Shown in pieces: positions 3,918 through 29,560 of a DNA stretch of 34,168 nt. Source of the stretch: Ignavibacteria bacterium (GTDB taxonomy: Bacteria; Bacteroidota; Ignavibacteria; Kapaibacteriales; UBA4661). Both the position numbers and the translations under genes were made by a program. Within the stretch, counting starts at the first letter, position 1; every line of letters starts with the position of its first letter. The notes beneath the pieces were generated by a model. The model made no database searches and was not told where the DNA came from. It saw only the letters and a list, made by a program, of their open reading frames with translations. The stretch covers positions 1 through 34,168 of the forward strand of contig CANHDJ010000040.1 in NCBI GenBank assembly GCA_947459425.1. The letters run 5' to 3'.

Positions 3918-4080
3918 GGCGTTATTCCTTGAAAAATGAAGAAGAATGAGAGATAGAATTATCACGAGTGGAGACCGCAAAATTACAAATATTTACGCAG
4001 CGAGCGAAAGAATTTCGCGGAATATATGATGCCGTAAAAGTAGAGAAAAAATGTAGCTTTGCTTCCCACAAAAACAAAGA

Positions 4081-4107
4081 AGCCCGCCAAACAAGATTTG
4101 GCAGGCT
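4081..4107 (-). terminator. Terminator after the blaR-like gene, possibly bidirectional
   Basis: An 11-bp stem (AGCCCGCCAAA / TTTGGCAGGCT) around the loop CAAGA. Read on the minus strand the single imperfect position becomes a G-U wobble and a T-rich tail follows; on the plus strand it is a C-A mismatch followed by TTTTTAT. That favours use as terminator of the blaR-like gene, which stops at 4150. It is nearly identical to the terminator after tRNA-Asn at 13411. Confidence 0.8.
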
Positions 4108-4149
4108 TTTTATGTTTTTCGCGCAAGTGCAGAAAGAAACACTTCTCGC

Positions 4150-7100
4150 TTAATCTCTATCGGTCAAAACCTCCACAATCCGTTTCGTGGATAAGCCATC
4201 GGCTTTGAGTTTTTTTATCGTTGAAATCCGAAACCCGCGTACGCCAATCTCCGCAATATCGTCTGTTGAAAAGCCCATTGCTTTCAGTTCTTTAGCAACT
4301 TCCGGTTTGATGCGGCGGACACCGAGTTCTTCAATATCGTCGTTGGAAAACCCAAGTGCTTTCATTTCTTTGATGTATTCCGGCTTGATGTCGCGTACAC
4401 CAAAATCACTGATTTCATCACGGTTTAACCCCAGACCGCGTAGCGACGATATTACGTCCAGCGTCAACCCACGAGCGCCAAATTCACGGATTTCTTCGGA
4501 AGAAAATCCTTTGTCGCGCATTTTTTTCACAAATTCCGGTTTGATGCCCATAACAGCAAATTCTTTAATGTCGTCCACACGCAAACCTGCATTTTTGTAG
4601 GCTTTCACAGTTTCCGGTTTGATGCCGAGTACGCCCACTTCTTTGATGTCCTCAACCTTGTAACCCAGCGCCTTCATTTCTTTGATATAGCCCGTTCTGA
4701 TGCCCAAAACACCGTATTCCTTGATTTCACGAATGGGAACGCCCGCGTCCTTAAATTCCTTCACCATTTCGGGGCGGATACCCAACACGCCAAGTTCTTT
4801 AATGTCCTCGACCTTGTAGCCAAGCGCTTTCATCTGTTTGATGTAGTCCATGCGAATACCCAACACACCATATTCCTTGATTTCACTGATAGGAACGCCT
4901 GCATCTTTGTACTCCTTCACGGCTGCCGGACGGATGCCCAAAGCGCCCAATTCCTTGATTTCCTCGACCTTGTAACCAAGGTCTTTCATTTGCTTAACGT
5001 AGTCAATTTTAATGCCCAAGACACCATATTCTTTGATCTCTTCCACCGGAACTCCTGCGGCTTTGTACTCTTTCACCATTTCGGGGCGAATACCCAACAC
5101 GCCAATTTCCTTGATGTCCTCGACCTTGTAACCCAGTGCCTTCATTTCTTTCACATAATCAGGACGAATGCCCAACACGCCATATTCCTTAATTTCGTCG
5201 GTCGGAACGCCTTCGTCTTTTAGTTCTTTTACTTTTTCGGGGCGAATGCCCAGTGCGCCGTATTCCTTGATTTCTTCGGTTTTGATGCCGTATTTTTTCA
5301 TTTCATTCACGTATTCCGGCTTAATACCCAAAACGCCTAATTCCTTGATTTCATCAATGGTGTAGCCATTTTTCTTCATTTCGGTAATGTAGTCGGTTTT
5401 AATACCCAAAACGCCATATTCCTTAATTTCTTCGCCATTTAAGCCAAGTTTTCGGGCTTCGCGGACAAATTCTGGTTTAATACCAACAACCGCAATTTCA
5501 ATCGCATCGTCCAGCGAGAGTTTCAAGTCCGCAAGCTCTTGTAAAAGCTCAATCTTGACATCTGTCAACGCAAGTGTCACCAAATCTCTGTCTGTGACAT
5601 TGGTAAAGCCAAACGATTTCAGCTTTTCAGCGTAGTCTTTGCTGGGTTGGAAGGTGTAGTTTCCACGCGCCTCGCCGCCTTTTGCATCGCCCGCAAAGGT
5701 GAAGGTGCCAGATTCTTTGACCAAACGAAATTCTACTTCACCCGACAACGTGCGGGCTTTGTCGGCACTCAAACCCTGCACTTCATTGTAGCGCAAGCCC
5801 GTATAAACCGTACCATTGTAGCGATTTTTGCCCCATTTGTTTTTGTACATGATCAGCGTCAATGCACGTTCTTTGAATTTTGCCTCCCAAAAGCCTTCGG
5901 TGCTGATAGCATCTTCGGATGAAAAAGAAAAACTGCGCTCAGAATCATTTTTGGTGGAATCATTCTGCGCAATGAGATTGTTTGCATTTGGCGCAATCGG
6001 CGCAACCATTCGCGCAACCAGTGTTGATGCTGCTGCTTGTGCTTGTGCGACGACTGGCGCAATAATGGGCTTGACCATCGGTTGCAGCATCGGGCTTGCT
6101 GTCAGCGAAAGGGCAAATAACGCCGTAATCACGCAATATGCCGCCAAATACTCTAGTGAAAAGGTGCGCTCGGTCGGTTTGCCTAGCAAACGCTTGACCC
6201 GCGTGAGCAAATGCCCATCGTTAGCGCCCACGCCTGCGGTGGCAAAGTGCGCTTCGTCGCTGGCAAGCGAGCGCTCCTCGAGAATAGCCAAGGCATTGGC
6301 TAAAGCACGACTATCACCACAAAGCGAAGCGGCAAGGTCGTCGGCAGCGTGTTCGCGTTCCTGACGAATTTGCGCCGACATCCACCAAACAGCAGGATGA
6401 TAAAACATGACTGTTTCGATAATTGCCTGAACAATGCTCATAATGTAGTCTTGATGCCGTGCGTGGGCAATTTCATGCGCAATAATTGCTTCTACGTGCG
6501 CGGTCTGCAAACCCGTCAAAAAGCCCATTGGCACAAGAATCACGGGTTTCAAAAAGCCCACAAGCATTGGCGCATTTGCCAAGCCGGATTCTATGAGGCG
6601 TGGTACACGTCGCAACTTCAGGCGCTCGGAAAATTCTTCAACACGATTCTGCCATGCCGAACTAGCCGGATGAGCGCGAAAATGCCGCATACGCTGTGCG
6701 TACGCCATTCCACCCAAAAAGCGCAATGCTAGGCAAATTGCACCTAAAAGCCACACAACAACCAGTATCGGCAAATATTCCTGCACACGCTCTATCCATG
6801 CGGCTTCCGGGGTAATCTGGATATGCGATAGGCGCAATGGCGCAAAGCGCGACGCACGAGCAATCTTGACGGAAGCATCGGGCGCGGCAGCCGTTGTGGG
6901 CGTACTCATCGTTTTCTCAACTTGCGCAGAAGCAGCATCAAGAGCCACTTCATTAACATGAATCGGTTCGTAGAGCGCAATAAATGTCAACGAAGCTGCC
7001 ACCATCGTGCTAACGAGGGCAACAGAAGCAACCACCGAGCGTGTGCGAGCAGAAGAGCGCCGGAGCAGTATCATCGCCACACCAAGCGTAAAGGCGATAA

Positions 7101-7185
7101 GCGTTCCCTGCCACAACGAATGAAGAAGTGTCCAGCCAAGTGCATCGGTAAGCGATTGCGGAAGAAAGGTTTGTAGCGTGTTCAT
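4150..7185 (-). CDS. BlaR1/MecR1-type M56 membrane metallopeptidase with C-terminal repeats
   Basis: A protein of 1011 residues. The N-terminal part has hydrophobic segments near residues 20-42, 50-72 and 136-156. A zinc site HEIAH lies at 237-241 with the EREHAADD segment after it, as in the M56 family, and a further membrane segment lies near 345-368. Residues about 415-540 are a beta-rich region. From about residue 543 to the end come eighteen 26-residue repeats in place of the penicillin-binding sensor of BlaR1. Known BlaR1/MecR1 proteins sense a signal outside the cell, activate the zinc protease and cause loss of the BlaI repressor. The blaI-like gene is 42 nt upstream in the same operon. 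The start has an AAGGAA site 8 nt before the ATG. The ligand is unknown, and nothing here suggests beta-lactams. Confidence 0.85.
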   Translation of the reverse strand: MNTLQTFLPQSLTDALGWTLLHSLWQGTLIAFTLGVAMILLRRSSARTRSVVASVALVSTMVAASLTFIALYEPIHVNEVALDAASAQVEKTMSTPTTAAAPDASVKIARASRFAPLRLSHIQITPEAAWIERVQEYLPILVVVWLLGAICLALRFLGGMAYAQRMRHFRAHPASSAWQNRVEEFSERLKLRRVPRLIESGLANAPMLVGFLKPVILVPMGFLTGLQTAHVEAIIAHEIAHARHQDYIMSIVQAIIETVMFYHPAVWWMSAQIRQEREHAADDLAASLCGDSRALANALAILEERSLASDEAHFATAGVGANDGHLLTRVKRLLGKPTERTFSLEYLAAYCVITALFALSLTASPMLQPMVKPIIAPVVAQAQAAASTLVARMVAPIAPNANNLIAQNDSTKNDSERSFSFSSEDAISTEGFWEAKFKERALTLIMYKNKWGKNRYNGTVYTGLRYNEVQGLSADKARTLSGEVEFRLVKESGTFTFAGDAKGGEARGNYTFQPSKDYAEKLKSFGFTNVTDRDLVTLALTDVKIELLQELADLKLSLDDAIEIAVVGIKPEFVREARKLGLNGEEIKEYGVLGIKTDYITEMKKNGYTIDEIKELGVLGIKPEYVNEMKKYGIKTEEIKEYGALGIRPEKVKELKDEGVPTDEIKEYGVLGIRPDYVKEMKALGYKVEDIKEIGVLGIRPEMVKEYKAAGVPVEEIKEYGVLGIKIDYVKQMKDLGYKVEEIKELGALGIRPAAVKEYKDAGVPISEIKEYGVLGIRMDYIKQMKALGYKVEDIKELGVLGIRPEMVKEFKDAGVPIREIKEYGVLGIRTGYIKEMKALGYKVEDIKEVGVLGIKPETVKAYKNAGLRVDDIKEFAVMGIKPEFVKKMRDKGFSSEEIREFGARGLTLDVISSLRGLGLNRDEISDFGVRDIKPEYIKEMKALGFSNDDIEELGVRRIKPEVAKELKAMGFSTDDIAEIGVRGFRISTIKKLKADGLSTKRIVEVLTDRD
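4153..5559 (-). repeat. About 18 tandem 26-residue (78-bp) repeats in the blaR-like gene
   Basis: The unit reads roughly I-[KR]-P-E-x-[VI]-K-E-[MY]-K-x-x-G-x-x-x-[ED]-[ED]-I-K-E-[YL]-G-V-L-G. In the middle (units 5-12) alternating units differ consistently: one type has EMKALGYKVEDIKEL, the other EYKDAGVPIEEIKEY. This gives a 52-residue (156-bp) higher-order period that probably arose by recent duplication. Edge units are more diverged. Two short amphipathic helices per unit suggest a solenoid; that fold is an inference. Confidence 0.95.
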
Positions 7186-7227: not shown

Positions 7228-7614
7228 TTATTGATTGTTCTTGATTTCTTCATCCAAAAGGGCGCGTATTTGCTTGAGTTCGGCGTTTGTAGGCTTGCTT
7301 GTGCCGAGAGCCTGCACGACAAGCTGCATCGCAGAGCCGCGAAAGACCGAGTTAAGCATTTTGCTCACAAAAGCACTTTGGACATCATTTTCACGCACCG
7401 ATGCCGAATAAATATGCGAACGCTGCGATTCATCCCGTGTCAGCAGCCCTTTGTCTGCCATGATTTGCATAAATTTCAGCGTCGTTGTATAGCCAATGCT
7501 GTCGTCGCCTTGTTGCTTATTAAGCGCTTCGTTGACTTCGCGGACGGTGGCGCTGCCGCTTTTCCAGAGAACTTGGAGGATTTCCAGTTCTGCGTCGGTA
7601 GGTTTGGGTATCAT
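7228..7614 (-). CDS. BlaI/MecI-family transcriptional repressor
   Basis: A protein of 128 residues. The N-terminal winged helix-turn-helix (residues 4-75) includes the family pattern PTDAELEILQVLW, VREVNEAL, GYTTTLKFMQIMADKGL. The C-terminal helical part would form the dimer and carry the cleavage or release point. A GGAG site lies 7 nt before the ATG. It is followed after 42 nt by the M56 peptidase gene, the standard two-gene arrangement. Paired dyads just upstream are likely its own operators, so the operon should be autorepressed. The target genes outside the operon are unknown. Confidence 0.92.
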   Translation of the reverse strand: MIPKPTDAELEILQVLWKSGSATVREVNEALNKQQGDDSIGYTTTLKFMQIMADKGLLTRDESQRSHIYSASVRENDVQSAFVSKMLNSVFRGSAMQLVVQALGTSKPTNAELKQIRALLDEEIKNNQ

Positions 7615-7635: not shown

Positions 7636-7677
7636 ATTGTACGAATCTCTTCGTACAATATTACGAAACTATTCGTA
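7636..7677 (-). promoter_or_regulatory. Two dyad operators for the BlaI-like repressor
   Basis: Site 1 (7636-7659) is a perfect 10-bp inverted repeat, ATTGTACGAA and TTCGTACAAT, with spacer TCTC. Site 2 (7662-7677) repeats the core TACGAA-N4-TTCGTA with spacer ACTA. The centres are 22 bp apart, about two helical turns, and lie 30-55 bp before the blaI start codon. Known BlaI/MecI repressors bind paired dyads in this position. The assignment is inferred from position and symmetry. Confidence 0.85.
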
Positions 7678-18458: not shown

Positions 18459-20384
18459 TTATGGAAATAGAGTAAAGTTATTATTATCGTTGTTTTCGTG
18501 GATGACGGTTTTGTACTGCTGTTGGGGATGATTGGGGATGTTGGGATACATCATTTCTAACAAACCTTCGCTAATCATTGTTGTTAGATACTGTGTTTGC
18601 AGCGTATTCGGCTTACGGTCTAATAACTCTGCTAATTCCGATAATTTTAGCCATCGAATACGACACAGTGCTAAAATAGTTTGCCGCATAGTATTTTGAG
18701 ATACTTTACCTGCTGAACTCACATACGATGCAATTTCCCGCAAATTCAGGGAGTCATCACTCAAATTCAGGGGGTTCTGACTCAAATTCAGGGAGTCATC
18801 ACTCAAATTCAGGGGGTTCTGACTCAAATTCAGGGAGTCATCACTCAAATCAGGTAAGATCTTCTGAACATTTACAGAGAATTTTTGGCTATCAAAAGAC
18901 TCTGGTAAGTGGTAGTATGTCCCTCGTCGTTGTCCTTCTGCCTCTAAATATCCTTGTTGAACTAAATCTTGAAGCAGTGTTGTTAAATCTTTTGAGTGTG
19001 ATTCGGAGACTTGCTGTAATCTCGTATTAGTAACTTTACCTTCACTGAACGCTATTGCTAATGTCATTCGAGCATTTGGAGGTAGTATGAAATAGTCTCT
19101 ACCAAAATATTTTGCTAATGGCTGTGTAATCTCATCGGCAATAAGACTTAAGAGTGGTAAACGAAGTAGAGAATATTCAGGTTGTGGAAAATCAGAAAAG
19201 TATGGAAGGTAATAATGTTGCTCTTTCCAAGCCGCAATAATACGAGGGAAGCCGGAGCCTGCCTGCTCACCCAAACCAATAAACCGAAACATTTTTTGTA
19301 GTGAAGGATTTCGGCAATCACTTCGCCCACCTTGATACAAACTGTAGTTTATCGGAAAACGAGACATACCTGGATTACAAAACTCAAACCTATCCTTGAA
19401 TTTTTTTATAGAAATACCAACAGTACCATGATAATCCGCGTGAACGATGGTATTTGTCAAGGCTTCTCGTAATGCCTTATGGACAGATGTTTCATCAATG
19501 CGACGCTGGTTCTCGTCAAGCTCAAAAGGTACTTTAAGATCTTGTACCAGTTTAGGATACATTCGACGATAAAAGTTAAACAAATTACCTACACCAATAT
19601 CATTGTTTGAAACACGATCTAGCCAATCAATTTCATTTTCACCATACTCAAAAAAATCAATTTTATAGTGTGGTAATCTATCATAAATGGAACGTACCTT
19701 GCCAAACATAAGTAATCCAGCAAGGGTTAAGCCTTTTTTTTCGGTTAAACGATCTTTATTCCAAACTCCCAAACGATATAAAAATAATTCATTGTCCAAC
19801 TGAGACATTTCATCATTGGGACGTAATGAAGCAAAAATATTACGATAGGCAACAATACTAGATTCTTCGAGGTCTTGCAACCAAAAGCCCTCTAGTATTT
19901 CACTATCACGCGCATCAGTTTGAGACTCAGCAATCATCCGTTTCACAGCCTCTGCATCACACTTGTAATCACCTTCGCCATTTCTTCTGTATGTTCCTGT
20001 TACCGGATTAGTCCCCGTATGAACAGGTCGTTGATGCCGTGTTGCACGTGGTACAGTAATGACAAGCACATTTTTCCCTTCAACATTTTCCACCTGAACA
20101 TCTTTATTGGACAGGAGATTTATACTGATTTTATTTTTGTCATTGAGCGAGTCCCAAAGCGCCTTCTGCACTTTATGAATATCCTTGATTCCAAGTATAT
20201 TCACAGAATAATCTTTATTCTCTTGAATCCCTAAAATAACCGTACCACCGTTGGTATTGGCAAAAGCCGAGTACGTTTCCCAAAAATCTCTGGGAACTTC
20301 TCCTTTTCCGTGCTGACCTTGTGCAGATTTGAACTCAAGTTCATCGGTTTCAACAAGATTAGAAAAATCAAATACTGTTACCAT
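18459..20384 (-). CDS. AlbA_2 (Schlafen-type) ATP-binding protein
   Basis: A protein of 641 residues. The N-terminal AlbA_2 domain reads ETDELEFKSAQGQHG, then YSAFANTNGGTVILGI, followed by GTYRRNGEGDYKC. In the middle a GHKL-like ATPase segment (ALREALTNTIVHADYHG, RFEFCNPG, GLGEQAGSGFPRI) matches HATPase_c_4 of this group, often labelled RecG-like or transcriptional regulator. The C-terminal third has one or two winged-helix-like parts, separated by five 7-residue repeats [DQ][DN][SP]LNLS. Known relatives are DNA-binding regulators or defence-linked proteins; the role here is unknown. The ATG at 20384 has no strong ribosome binding site. The next gene, leuS, starts 9 nt later. Base use looks more A/T-rich than in the neighbouring genes, which hints at acquisition. 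Confidence 0.85.
   Translation of the reverse strand: MVTVFDFSNLVETDELEFKSAQGQHGKGEVPRDFWETYSAFANTNGGTVILGIQENKDYSVNILGIKDIHKVQKALWDSLNDKNKISINLLSNKDVQVENVEGKNVLVITVPRATRHQRPVHTGTNPVTGTYRRNGEGDYKCDAEAVKRMIAESQTDARDSEILEGFWLQDLEESSIVAYRNIFASLRPNDEMSQLDNELFLYRLGVWNKDRLTEKKGLTLAGLLMFGKVRSIYDRLPHYKIDFFEYGENEIDWLDRVSNNDIGVGNLFNFYRRMYPKLVQDLKVPFELDENQRRIDETSVHKALREALTNTIVHADYHGTVGISIKKFKDRFEFCNPGMSRFPINYSLYQGGRSDCRNPSLQKMFRFIGLGEQAGSGFPRIIAAWKEQHYYLPYFSDFPQPEYSLLRLPLLSLIADEITQPLAKYFGRDYFILPPNARMTLAIAFSEGKVTNTRLQQVSESHSKDLTTLLQDLVQQGYLEAEGQRRGTYYHLPESFDSQKFSVNVQKILPDLSDDSLNLSQNPLNLSDDSLNLSQNPLNLSDDSLNLREIASYVSSAGKVSQNTMRQTILALCRIRWLKLSELAELLDRKPNTLQTQYLTTMISEGLLEMMYPNIPNHPQQQYKTVIHENNDNNNFTLFP
18741..18850 (-). 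repeat. In-frame 21-bp minisatellite
   Basis: Five tandem 21-bp units starting CAAATTCAGGG, of two alternating types (GAGTCATCACT and GGTTCTGACT endings), giving a 42-bp period, plus a partial unit. They encode DDSLNLS and QNPLNLS alternately. Because 21 is a multiple of three, changes in copy number would keep the frame. Confidence 0.95.
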
Positions 20385-25900: not shown

Positions 25901-28900
25901 ATGTTCGCAGAATTTTTTCGCTACGAAATCCGCTATAACCTTGCCCGACCCGTTACGTGGGTCTATTTTGGGATGATGGTTTTTTTTGGTGCAATGATTA
26001 CCTCCTTTGCCGGAGGTGGCTTTGCTGATATTAACGTCTCAATAGGCGGCATGAATAGCGGCGGGATTGTGTATGTGAATGCCGCCACGCCGATTGCCTT
26101 TGCCACGATTTTGGTTACGTCTATTTTTGGTTTGAGCATTGTTTCTTCGCTCTTTTCCACATCAGTGCAACGCGATTTCGAGAACAATACGCACTCACTC
26201 TTTTACACTTCGCCGATTAGCAAAACAGGCTATTTGGGCGGGCGATTTGCGGCGGTCGTGCTGATAGTGCTGGTAATAATGTCGGGATGTTCGCTGGGTC
26301 TGATGCTACCTACGTTTATCCCGAATTTCCTCAAGCCGGAAAAGGTTGGTCCTTTTAACCTCGCGTTCTACCTGCATCCACTTTTTCTCTTTACTTTACC
26401 GAATATTCTATTTGCGGGCGGCTTGTTTTTTATGGTGAGTTCGCTGACGCGAAAAGCTAATGCGGCAAATTACTTAGCAACGTTTCTGCTTTTGGGATAT
26501 TTGCTGGCAAGCAATCTTGTCCGCGACCTTGAAAACGAGACGGTTGCTGCGTTGCTTGATCCATTTGGCTTGATTACATACGGCATTGCCACGCGCTATT
26601 GGACAGCGGTGGAGCGCAATACCACGCTCTTACAGCTTGCGGGAACGGTGCTGGCAAATAGAGCGATTTGGCTGGCTGCGGGCGTTGCCTTTGCAGCATT
26701 TGCCTACAATCGCTTCAAATTTCAACACGTCGTGCCAGAGAAACATAAAAAGGCGGAATCGGATGCCATGCCCGAAGGCAGCACTTTTACGTTAGCGCTT
26801 CCATCTGCTACACGCGATTTTTCCTCTGCCTCAATTTGGCGCGTCTTTGCGACGTTTGTGAAGGTGTATGTGCGCGGAATTGTGCGCGAAAAATCGTTTT
26901 TAGGCATTATTCTCGGTATGACGGTGTTTCTCATTATTCTCCTGCGCAATGTCGGTTCGATTTACGGCACCGAGACTTATCCCGTAACTTACAACGTACT
27001 TGAAATCTTGATTGGTAGCTTGTCGCTGTATCTGCTCTACATCATCACGTACTACGCGGGAGACTTGGTGTTCCATGAGCGAGAAATGAAGGTGGACGCT
27101 ATCACCGATACGCTTCCTGTGCCGACGTGGGTGCTGTTTGTGGCGAAACTAGCGGCGTTGGCGCTGGTGATAGCGATGTTCTGCGCGGCGCTGATTCCGA
27201 TTGGCATGATAACGCAAGTTTCCAACGGCTACACGAACTTTGAAGTGGGCTTGTACGTGAAGGAAATTTTCGGTTTGCGTTATCTTGAATTTGTGATGAT
27301 TGCTGCTTTGGCGCTCTTTGTGCATACGGTCGCCAACAACAAATATGTGGGCTATATCGTTATCGGTATTTACTATATGGCAATGAGTTTCGGTTCGCGC
27401 TTGGGCATCGAGCATAATTTGTGGAAATACGGCTCCGACCCCGGAATTACCTACTCCGATATGAACGAGTACGGGCATTTTCTCGCGCCATTTTTCTGGT
27501 ACAAACTCTACTGGGGCGCTTGTGCCTTGATTTTGACAGCAACCACGTATCTGCTCTGGGTGCGGGGTACGGAAAGCGATTGGACAACAAGACTCAGTTT
27601 GCTCAAAAGCCGCTTCACAAGCCGTACGGGGGCGTTTATTGGTGCAAGTGCGCTTGTTTTCGGCAGTACAGGTGGATGGATTTTTTACAACAACAACATC
27701 CTCAACACTTACCGAACCGAGAAGGAAACAACGCTCTTGCAGGTGGATTACGAGAAAAATTTCAAAAAATATGAGCGCCTCGTACAGCCCAAAATCACGG
27801 ATGTTCGCGTCGAAGCAGATATTTTTCCCGAAGAGCGCAACATGATTATTCGCGGGCGGTACATCCTCGAAAACAAGTCTCAATCAGCGATTCAGGAGAT
27901 TCACGTCAATACGCCGAATGAGTACAAATCGCGCGAAATGACGCTGGCGTTCTCTCGCCCCGCAACGGTTAAACTTGCCGATAAACGGCTTGGTTACTAC
28001 ATTTACACGCTTGCCGCGCCCTTGCAGCCCAAAGATACCTTGACGCTGAATTTCGTTTCCAGCGTGCAATCACACGGCTTTTCGGAAAGTGAGTCCGGTA
28101 GTGAAAATGTCCGCATTGCCAAGAACGGTACATTTGTTAGCAACGACAACTACTTACCGTCCTTGGGCTATGAGCCTGCGGGAGAAATGACCGACAAAGA
28201 CGAGCGCAAGAAATACGGTTTGCCGCCTCGTCCAGAAGGGCTTCCGCCTGTAAGCGATGAATTCTATCGTCGGCGTAATCTTTTCAACCGTGATGCCGAT
28301 TGGGTGAGTTTTGAAGCGACTCTCAGTACCAGCCCTGATCAAATCGCCATTGCGCCGGGATATTTACAAAAAACATGGGAGCAAAACGGTCGTAAATACT
28401 TCCGCTACACCATGGATTCTAAAATGGCAAACTTTTTTGCGCTGATTTCCGGGCGTTATGAAATCAAGCGCGATGTGTGGTTTGATTCTTTACAAAATCG
28501 CCCCGTCAATATAGAGGTGTTTTACCACAAAGCTCATGAATACAACGTTTTGACGATGATTGACGCAACAAAAAAGTCGCTCGCCTACTACACGAAAAAC
28601 TTCGGACCATACCAGCACAAACAACTCCGTATCATCGAATTTCCACGCTTTGCGTCCTTTGCGCAGTCGTTCCCGAACACGGTTCCGTACTCCGAAAGCA
28701 TCGGTTTTATCGCACGGGTGAAGGATGAGGAGGAAGATATTAACTATCCATTCTACGTTACGGCACATGAAGTGGCGCACCAGTGGTGGGGACACCAAGT
28801 AATCGGTGGTTTCGTGGAGGGTTCGCAGGTCATGTCGGAGACGATGGCGCAGTATTCGGCACTGATGGTGATGGAAAAAGAATACGGCAAAGAAAAAATG

Positions 28901-29560
28901 CGGCGCTTTTTGAAGTACGAATTGGACGATTACCTGTCGGGACGCGGCTTTGCGACGCAGGAGCGCCCGCTTGCAAAAATTGCCCTTGGCGACCAGCATA
29001 TTCACTACAACAAAGGCTCACTCGTGATGTATTCGCTGAGGGATTACATCGGCGAAGACCGCTTAAATGCTGCTCTCAAAGGCTATGTCGAAAAAGTACG
29101 TTTTCAAGAATCACCGTTTACAACGTGTGAGGAGTTTGTCGCTGCGCTGCGCCCTGCTGTGCCAGATTCGCTGCAATACCTCATCACCGACCTTTTTGAG
29201 ACGATTACGCTTTACAACAATCGCGCTCTGAAGGCAGTAGCCAAGCCGGAAGCAAACGGGATGTATGCTCTCAAACTCACGCTGGATTGCCAAAAAGTTC
29301 GTGCCGACAGCGTTGGGAATGAGAAAGATGCTTTGCTCAATGATTGGGTGGATATTGGTGTTTTTGGAAAAACCAAAGGCGCGAGCGGCAAAGAGCGCGA
29401 CACGTTATTGCTTATGGAGCGTCATCAAATCAAGCGTGGTGAGCAGACCTTAACACTGCTGGTGCGCGGCGAACCTAAGAAAGCCGACATTGACCCGCAA
29501 AGCAAACTTCTCGACCGCAAGCCATCGGATAATTTGAAGGATGTGGAAATTCAGAGGTGA
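25901..29560 (+). CDS. ABC-2 permease fused to an M1-family aminopeptidase domain
   Basis: A protein of 1219 residues. Residues 1-270 hold six or so membrane helices of an ABC-2 permease; a second set spans about 325-600, ending with SRTGAFIGASALVFGSTGG. A beta-rich extracytoplasmic region follows from about 640. The peptidase domain has the zinc motif H956-E-V-A-H960 with the third ligand in QVMSETMAQY (E980, 19 residues after H960 rather than the usual 18). The GAMEN exopeptidase motif is replaced by ASFAQSFPNTVPYSES. A strong GAAAGGAG site precedes the ATG. The fusion is a known arrangement in Bacteroidota. The role is probably export linked to peptide processing at the membrane; the substrate is unknown. 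Confidence 0.93.
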   Translation: MFAEFFRYEIRYNLARPVTWVYFGMMVFFGAMITSFAGGGFADINVSIGGMNSGGIVYVNAATPIAFATILVTSIFGLSIVSSLFSTSVQRDFENNTHSLFYTSPISKTGYLGGRFAAVVLIVLVIMSGCSLGLMLPTFIPNFLKPEKVGPFNLAFYLHPLFLFTLPNILFAGGLFFMVSSLTRKANAANYLATFLLLGYLLASNLVRDLENETVAALLDPFGLITYGIATRYWTAVERNTTLLQLAGTVLANRAIWLAAGVAFAAFAYNRFKFQHVVPEKHKKAESDAMPEGSTFTLALPSATRDFSSASIWRVFATFVKVYVRGIVREKSFLGIILGMTVFLIILLRNVGSIYGTETYPVTYNVLEILIGSLSLYLLYIITYYAGDLVFHEREMKVDAITDTLPVPTWVLFVAKLAALALVIAMFCAALIPIGMITQVSNGYTNFEVGLYVKEIFGLRYLEFVMIAALALFVHTVANNKYVGYIVIGIYYMAMSFGSRLGIEHNLWKYGSDPGITYSDMNEYGHFLAPFFWYKLYWGACALILTATTYLLWVRGTESDWTTRLSLLKSRFTSRTGAFIGASALVFGSTGGWIFYNNNILNTYRTEKETTLLQVDYEKNFKKYERLVQPKITDVRVEADIFPEERNMIIRGRYILENKSQSAIQEIHVNTPNEYKSREMTLAFSRPATVKLADKRLGYYIYTLAAPLQPKDTLTLNFVSSVQSHGFSESESGSENVRIAKNGTFVSNDNYLPSLGYEPAGEMTDKDERKKYGLPPRPEGLPPVSDEFYRRRNLFNRDADWVSFEATLSTSPDQIAIAPGYLQKTWEQNGRKYFRYTMDSKMANFFALISGRYEIKRDVWFDSLQNRPVNIEVFYHKAHEYNVLTMIDATKKSLAYYTKNFGPYQHKQLRIIEFPRFASFAQSFPNTVPYSESIGFIARVKDEEEDINYPFYVTAHEVAHQWWGHQVIGGFVEGSQVMSETMAQYSALMVMEKEYGKEKMRRFLKYELDDYLSGRGFATQERPLAKIALGDQHIHYNKGSLVMYSLRDYIGEDRLNAALKGYVEKVRFQESPFTTCEEFVAALRPAVPDSLQYLITDLFETITLYNNRALKAVAKPEANGMYALKLTLDCQKVRADSVGNEKDALLNDWVDIGVFGKTKGASGKERDTLLLMERHQIKRGEQTLTLLVRGEPKKADIDPQSKLLDRKPSDNLKDVEIQR

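What the first reader, a model, noticed from the sequence alone, without database searches (positions are those of the whole stretch)
4150..7185. BlaR1-like sensor whose ligand domain is an 18-unit repeat array
The M56 zinc protease sits next to a BlaI repressor with clean operators, so the switch itself looks functional. The extracytoplasmic end is not a penicillin-binding domain but a beta-rich region plus eighteen 26-residue repeats with a 52-residue super-period. Seen: repeats, zinc site, operon. Known: BlaR1 signalling through M56 cleavage. Inferred: the array is a solenoid that binds a polymer or peptide ligand, and recent duplication in units 5-12 tunes its length.
Basis: partly seen in the sequence, partly recalled or inferred. 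Interest (0 to 1): 0.7.

Follow-up and report, generated by a model that had tools for sequence, protein, structure and literature searches.

The report
Protease sensor with periplasmic helical-repeat array
An uncultured bacterium carries a membrane protease switch related to the penicillin sensor BlaR1, but its outside part is a long helical-repeat array instead of a penicillin-binding domain, and in related species the same switch appears to control an uncharacterised protein that looks like an outer-membrane protein.

Summary
ORF 7185-4150(-) is a 1011-aa M56 protease with BlaR1-like catalytic motifs beside blaI. Its C-terminus is a beta region plus 18 units of 26 residues. AlphaFold2 predicts two helices per unit, an alpha-solenoid; topology evidence puts it outside the inner membrane. 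Unit number is 13-19 among eight relatives, but the window's units are saturated at synonymous sites, so 'recent duplication' fails here. The architecture is not unique: BlaI + M56 + homologous beta region + 29-residue repeats occur in other Bacteroidota families. In the window's genome (87% complete) perfect operators occur only at blaI. In relatives the operator recurs upstream of one gene, a ~440-aa putative outer-membrane protein without Pfam, NCBIfam or PDB match: perfect sites in four genomes, paired one-mismatch sites in two, i.e. all 6 of the ten family genomes in which the gene was found. Elsewhere in the phylum, 7 of 94 homologues of that gene lie in one co-directional cluster with blaI and M56, though those sensors lack the repeats. 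Most likely the locus is a derepression switch for an envelope protein. The ligand is unknown, and the target gene was not found in the window's own genome.

The parts
4150..7185 (-). M56 (BlaR1-type) membrane protease with C-terminal beta region and 26-residue repeat array, 1011 aa
6334..7101 (-). Peptidase_M56 domain, residues 29-284
   Evidence: 2.6e-26
6463..6477 (-). HEIAH zinc motif, residues 237-241; aligns with BlaR1 H201ExxH
6340..6354 (-). ExxxD, residues 278-282; aligns with BlaR1 E242xxxD
6100..6156 (-). last predicted transmembrane helix, residues 344-362, before the extracytoplasmic part
   Evidence: hydropathy peak 350-358; helix in the full model, at low pLDDT of about 50
5644..5898 (-). 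beta region, residues 430-514
   Evidence: six strands in the full model, three in the C-terminal model; homologous to the beta region of other Bacteroidota M56 proteins
4156..5559 (-). array of 18 26-residue units, residues 543-1010, two predicted helices per unit
7228..7614 (-). BlaI-type repressor (Penicillinase_R), 128 aa
7640..7655 (.). operator copy 1, TACGAATCTCTTCGTA
   Evidence: counterparts
7662..7677 (.). operator copy 2, TACGAAACTATTCGTA, 22 bp from copy 1
   Evidence: counterparts
4080..4108 (-). terminator-like hairpin after the M56 gene; suggests a two-gene operon
   Evidence: terminator-like sites overall are at shuffle level: 7 found, mean 6.7

Best explanation
The locus is a two-gene, self-repressed signalling switch. 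BlaI sits on two operators and silences blaI-M56. The M56 protein spans the inner membrane; its zinc site faces the cytoplasm, and its C-terminal beta region plus alpha-solenoid stands in the periplasm. An envelope signal read by that periplasmic part activates the protease, which cuts BlaI and frees the promoters. In relatives the second promoter freed belongs to a putative outer-membrane protein, so the switch adjusts an outer-membrane component. Shown by sequence: domains, catalytic residues, operators, repeats, operators before the target gene, and clusters of the same three gene families elsewhere. Predicted: solenoid and topology. Inferred: repression, cleavage of BlaI, the signal, and that the target is an outer-membrane protein.
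For: M56 and BlaI domains; H237/H241/E278/D282/D246 align with BlaR1 H201/H205/E242/D246/D210. Loop charges: loop 1 +3, loop 2 -2. Two helices per unit with pLDDT mostly 80-93 over the array. At least two perfect operators, 21-24 bp apart, upstream of blaI in 8 of 8 fetched orthologous operons; the same-genus genome without a match to the protein, G003, has 0 perfect sites. Operators upstream of the putative outer-membrane protein gene in all 6 of the ten family genomes (G000-G009) in which it was found: perfect in 4, paired one-mismatch in 2. In other Bacteroidota, 7 of 94 places with a homologue of that gene have both BlaI and M56 beside it, co-directional; none has only one of the two; all 7 M56 pass the Pfam cut-off.
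Against: The target gene was not found in the window's genome (87% complete) nor in its closest kin G002 (91%), nor in G008 (70%), so in this species the only visible target is the operon itself. The number of extra perfect operators in the nine relatives (6) is about that of the reversed control (5), and one-mismatch counts are below the control; only position speaks for the target sites. BlaI residues N101/F102, cut in S. aureus, are Q101/A102 here, so the cut site must differ. No ligand evidence. The 7 M56 proteins clustered with target homologues show no 26- or 29-residue repeat, so that link does not bear on the array. pTM of the models is low (0.44 and 0.36), so overall shape is not fixed, and the two models disagree on the first half of the beta region.
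Confidence: 0.66

Rival explanations
1. The switch is self-contained in the window's species: it controls only its own operon, and the repeat protein is itself the effector (for example an envelope scaffold), the protease merely setting its own level.
For: Only two perfect operators in the genome, both at blaI; the 8 one-mismatch sites are fewer than the reversed-pattern control and 6 of them lie inside ORFs; target gene not found in G000 and G002; beta region plus repeats exist as proteins without M56 (L098 and the second ORF of L085, read in full).
Against: Operators precede the putative outer-membrane protein gene in all six family genomes in which it was found, and the three gene families cluster elsewhere.
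Confidence: 0.2
2. The array senses a soluble polymer or peptide ligand, for example a peptidoglycan or polysaccharide fragment bound along the solenoid groove.
For: Array is probably extracytoplasmic and helical; a peptidoglycan fragment as trigger in B. licheniformis is the title subject of PMC3305447 (search listing only).
Against: No carbohydrate-binding family over its Pfam cut-off; no fold match in PDB at E<=0.001; nothing here tests binding.
Confidence: 0.3
3. The array is a passive spacer or periplasm-spanning rod, and the beta region (or the beta region plus first units) is the real sensor.
For: Units 1-5 keep one-to-one best matches in the five genus orthologues compared while the middle of the array gains and loses units (13-19 in all); a homologous beta region precedes repeats of a different period, 29, in other M56 proteins.
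Against: Repeat residues are under protein-level constraint: first/second-position identity 0.76 against third-position 0.41 at distance 2.
Confidence: 0.3

Closest known systems
BlaR1/MecR1 with BlaI/MecI (MEROPS M56; S. aureus structures 8EXP-8EXT, PMC9834060)
   Same: M56 domain, zinc ligands and neighbouring residues, probable N-out/C-out topology, adjacent repressor, paired palindromic operators
   Different: No penicillin-binding domain; beta region plus 26-residue helical repeats instead; no beta-lactamase gene in the two-gene operon; scissile N101/F102 of BlaI not kept
BlaI + M56 + beta region + 29-residue repeats in other Bacteroidota families (L084-L087, L093, L096, L099)
   Same: M56 over the Pfam cut-off in 7 of 7; a BlaI-type ORF directly upstream (Pfam-tested in L084 and L087, by eye in the rest); beta regions homologous (hhalign probability 98.6, E 1.3e-15, profiles built from five rows each)
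   Different: Repeat period 29, not 26; other palindromes near blaI, TACTAAT-N2-ATTAGTA in L086, L087, L093, L096
BlaI/M56/putative outer-membrane protein clusters (G111, G130, G220, G268)
   Same: Repressor, M56 protease and homologue of the target gene in one co-directional cluster
   Different: Sensors have other C-terminal parts with no 26- or 29-residue repeat (7 of 7)
Decapeptide repeats of DotG/IcmE (PF25296) and designed helical repeat 5cwb
   Same: Pfam PF25296 at 82.8 bits (cut-off 45); profile hit to IcmE at 6.8e-23 and to 5cwb at 2.1e-16, on 'LK..GFS..DI'-like helix pairs
   Different: Period 26 here; different protein context; the best PF25296 stretch is one residue long (773-773), and the 29-residue relatives do not match it

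Membership tests
BlaR1/MecR1 (peptidase family M56 receptor) | Peptidase_M56 domain over the curated cut-off | tested here: met
   93 bits against 31
BlaR1/MecR1 (peptidase family M56 receptor) | HExxH ... ExxxD gluzincin motifs | tested here: met
   H237EIAH and E278xxxD282 align with H201ExxH and E242xxxD246
BlaR1/MecR1 (peptidase family M56 receptor) | C-terminus on the outside | tested here: inconclusive
   Hydropathy, loop charges and predicted helices agree; no dedicated topology program or experiment
BlaR1/MecR1 (peptidase family M56 receptor) | Penicillin-binding (class D beta-lactamase-like) sensor domain | tested here: not met
   No such Pfam domain at E<=1; NCBIfam blaR1_generic 71.4 bits against cut-off 400
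BlaR1/MecR1 (peptidase family M56 receptor) | Autocleavage site (Ser283/Phe284 in S. aureus) | tested here: inconclusive
   F314 is invariant in 9 of 9 rows, but the alignment to BlaR1 ends before this loop
BlaI/MecI repressors | Penicillinase_R domain | tested here: met
   85.4 bits against 22.6
BlaI/MecI repressors | Palindromic operators at own promoter | tested here: met
   Pair at 7640/7662 and at least two in 8 of 8 orthologous promoters; binding not tested
BlaI/MecI repressors | Asn101/Phe102 cleavage site | tested here: not met
   Q101/A102 in the window protein; 'QALG' in 8 of 8 kin
Pfam PF25296 (Decapeptide repeat, DotG/IcmE) | Score over the cut-off with meaningful repeat stretches | tested here: inconclusive
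   82.8 bits against 45 with 4 stretches at E<=1, but the best stretch is one residue; period 26, not 10; no match in the 29-residue relatives at the thresholds used
Other named helical families of Pfam | A domain hit that explains the array | tested here: not met
   MerR-DNA-bind, MerR_1 and UBA_3 exceed cut-offs with no stretch passing on its own; CPSase_L_D3 exceeds its cut-off with one stretch, 599-666; nothing over a cut-off for three relatives with the longer-period repeat

The most novel reading that the evidence does not exclude
The 18-unit solenoid is a periplasmic rod through which the inner-membrane M56 protease reads the state of the outer membrane or of an outer-membrane protein, and the switch controls that same kind of outer-membrane protein. 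BlaI/M56/outer-membrane-protein circuits would then be a Bacteroidota envelope-sensing system with interchangeable sensor domains.
Probability: 0.15. Interest if true: 0.75.

Novelty: new variant of a known kind. Interest (0 to 1): 0.52.

Why it matters
M56 genes over the Pfam cut-off occur in 101 of 198 sampled phylum genomes, and the papers listed by my searches showed no described signal or target for M56 sensors of this non-penicillin kind. Here two lines of evidence, operators in one family and gene clusters in two others, point to one uncharacterised protein family with features of an outer-membrane protein. That turns an open question (what do BlaR1-like proteins without a penicillin domain sense and control) into one that a promoter assay can test.

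Tried and rejected
MerR, CPSase_L_D3 and UBA hits to the array and NCBIfam DotG and MerR hits (all below their cut-offs) were rejected as family assignments; the PF25296/IcmE similarity is kept as local similarity of uncertain meaning. Foldseek against PDB and BFVD gave nothing at E<=0.001; a long repeat is a poor query, so this says little. Recent duplication in the window's array: not supported, because synonymous sites are near saturation. A scan of viral contigs with the protein found no relative. Rfam found only one tRNA in the window.

The 8 one-mismatch operators elsewhere in G000 were inspected: 6 lie inside ORFs; 2 are intergenic, 86 bp before a leucine-rich secreted-looking protein (L054) and about 60 bp before another secreted-looking protein (L057). 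The control is higher than the count, so I treat them as background; the L054 site has a counterpart of the same sequence in G002. The G004 perfect site upstream of an S41 peptidase is also treated as background. Row L016 (G089, 29% to the repeats, 184-aa frame) was not followed. M56 proteins L042-L047 were listed but not analysed further.

The chance expectation of about 0.4 of 94 for M56 neighbours, which I used to judge, is my own estimate (about two M56 genes per 4 Mb, 9-kb stretches), not a tool result. The neighbour test (phmmer E<=1e-4) can miss divergent M56 or BlaI, and some stretches were cut by contig ends. The 7 positive places come from 4 genomes, three of one genus, in two gene orders, so they are not seven independent events. 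G001 and G006 target promoters are similar by descent (target 95% identical). In L169 about 0.5 kb separates M56 and target, so not all seven clusters are tightly packed. I lowered the best-explanation confidence from 0.68 to 0.66 on re-reading, because the two structure models disagree on part of the beta region.
Full report
What is there. The ORF at 7185-4150(-) encodes 1011 aa and follows blaI (7614-7228) in the same direction. Residues 29-284 match Pfam Peptidase_M56 at 2.6e-26; blaI matches Penicillinase_R at 4.7e-24; no penicillin-binding domain is listed at E<=1. This is the only M56 over the cut-off and the only BlaI found in the held genome, G000, 86.6% complete. A terminator-like hairpin lies after the M56 gene, and the next gene is an acyl-CoA dehydrogenase, so the operon seems to hold two genes.

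Catalytic parts. In BlaR1 the zinc site is H201ExxH and E242xxxD with D210, and the protein is N-out/C-out (passages of PMC9834060 seen). The phmmer alignment to 8EXS/8EXP places window H237EIAH, D246 and E278xxxD282 on those residues. Hydropathy peaks lie near residues 32, 57-66, 142-154 and 350-358, with a weaker one near 211-217. The loop between the first two is +3 and the long second loop is -2, as expected if the M56 domain is cytoplasmic and everything after about residue 365 is outside. This is consistent with, not proof of, a periplasmic array. In S. aureus BlaI the cut is at N101/F102; the window repressor has Q101/A102, so the cleavage site must lie elsewhere or have changed.

The array. 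Seventeen in-register 26-residue units fill 569-1010, and a degenerate unit at 543-568 makes eighteen. Identity at shift 26 is 0.482, against 0.083 for shuffles; shift 52 gives 0.562. AlphaFold2 on residues 430-1011 with eight rows gave mean pLDDT 81.5 and pTM 0.44: two helices of about nine residues per unit over the array, but its first 52 residues (430-481) were below pLDDT 50. The full-length model gave mean pLDDT 67.9 and pTM 0.36, six strands between 430 and 514, and the same helices; its membrane part is of low confidence. I read this as an alpha-solenoid with well-predicted local structure and an uncertain overall curve. Foldseek found no PDB or BFVD match at E<=0.001.

Age and copy number. 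The genome-contig scan matched 139 stretches, of which 8 encode relatives, all in MAGs labelled Ignavibacteria or Candidatus Kapaibacterium; PMC7714850 describes one such MAG, Clear-D13, from a cyanobacterial enrichment (search listing only). That the window belongs to this group is inferred from those relatives, one of them 97% identical over the protein. Unit counts from the first degenerate unit are 18 (window) and 18, 15, 19, 17, 19, 18 in L118-L123; the two other genera have 13 units scored by the profile. Differences fall in the middle of the array and near its end. Within the window, paralogous units two apart share 0.76 of first and second codon positions but 0.41 of third positions, and codon identity at conserved residues is 0.526 against 0.489 expected from usage. 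The units are therefore old and held alike by selection. More alike neighbours occur in relatives (best pair 0.96 in L121, 0.92 in L123, 0.90 in L122, 0.86 in L120).

Not a unique architecture. A profile of the beta region plus first repeats matches 51 of 395 phylum genomes at 1e-6, many of them only to the repeat part. Seven of the loci are M56 genes that I read in full (L084-L087, L093, L096, L099), and 7 of 7 pass the M56 cut-off; two of their upstream repressors were scanned and both are Penicillinase_R. Their repeats have a period of 29 in 7 of 7, against 26 in the window. Profiles of the two beta regions match with hhalign probability 98.6, E 1.3e-15. The module also occurs without M56 in L098 and in a second ORF of L085 (both read in full). 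Repeats alone occur in membrane proteins of 227-286 residues; three of the four looked at (L102, L103, L116, not L104) lie beside a response regulator-like gene. Three proteins with the longer-period kind of repeat match no Pfam model over its cut-off.

Regulon. In the window's genome perfect TACGAA-N4-TTCGTA occurs twice, both at blaI; 8 more places have one mismatch, fewer than the reversed-pattern control. In 8 of 8 fetched orthologous operons at least two perfect sites 21-24 bp apart precede blaI. The same-genus genome G003, in which the protein was not found, has no perfect site. Six further perfect sites exist in five of the nine relatives; the reversed control gives five, so the number itself means nothing. 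But five of the six, in four genomes (G001, G006, G007 and a pair in G009), lie 26-83 bp before the first ATG of one and the same gene. A search for that gene finds it in 6 of 10 genomes, and the remaining two, G004 and G005, carry two one-mismatch sites before it. A MAFFT alignment of the six promoters has 9 invariant columns, mean identity 38%, and did not bring the operators into register, so the surroundings are not conserved; G001 and G006 are close relatives.

The target. The gene encodes about 430-445 aa with a signal-peptide-like start, a conserved cysteine-containing N-terminal segment and a long beta-like remainder (by eye). It has no Pfam, NCBIfam or PDB sequence match. Calling it an outer-membrane protein is my inference from sequence; I could not model it. 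Homologues occur in 73 of 296 phylum genomes. I fetched up to 4 kb on each side of all 94 listed places outside the window's genus (some cut by contig ends) and searched for BlaI and M56: 7 of 94 have both, co-directional; none has only one; 87 have neither. They come from G111, G130 and G220 (one genus, two loci each) and G268. Gene orders are BlaI-target-M56 (3) and BlaI-M56-target (4); the genes are closely packed in six and about 0.5 kb separates M56 and target in L169. All 7 M56 pass the Pfam cut-off, and none shows the repeats. So the link between BlaI/M56 and this target is seen twice, by operators in the window's family and by gene neighbourhood elsewhere, and does not depend on the repeat array.

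Mechanism. By analogy with BlaR1 (PMC9834060, PMC7593790; passages seen), an outside event is passed through the membrane to the M56 site, which cuts BlaI. Here the outside part is the beta region plus solenoid. Which of these reads the signal, and what the signal is, are open. The target suggests the outer membrane is involved. In the window's own genome the target gene was not found (nor in G002), so there the visible regulon is the operon itself; either the gene lies in the missing part of both assemblies or it has been lost.

Novelty. Paper searches listed nothing that I recognised as M56 sensors with helical repeats or this target; I saw listings only, apart from passages of two papers, and the library holds only open-licence papers and no preprints, so this is weak evidence. 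I rate it a new variant of a known kind.

Noticed in passing
window 18741-18854: In-frame 21/42-bp tandem repeat (98% at period 42) inside ORF 18459-20384, giving repeated 'SDDSLNLSQNPLN'; by eye the ORF resembles AlbA-type DNA-binding regulators.
   Followed up: no
L102, L103, L104, L116: Membrane proteins of 227-286 residues with the longer-period repeat, in L102, L103 and L116 next to a response regulator-like gene, in one Bacteroidota family.
   Followed up: partly
L085:3566-5179: A beta-region-plus-repeat protein without M56 directly after the M56 gene, like a separate copy of the sensor part.
   Followed up: no
L100: Another M56-like protein (HELAH) whose C-terminal half is a 29-residue repeat array with near-identical copies; part of it reads as masked N.
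   Followed up: partly
L154, L157: Homologues of the target gene lie near a sigma-factor-like ORF (L154) and beside related small secreted-looking proteins, hinting at other regulators of the same target in other lineages.
   Followed up: no
L086, L087, L093, L096: A different palindrome, TACTAAT-N2-ATTAGTA, close to blaI in M56-repeat operons of other families.
   Followed up: no
window 25901-29560: A 1219-aa ORF that reads like an ABC-type membrane permease followed by an M1-like metallopeptidase (HEVAH), downstream of an ABC ATPase (assignment by eye).
   Followed up: no
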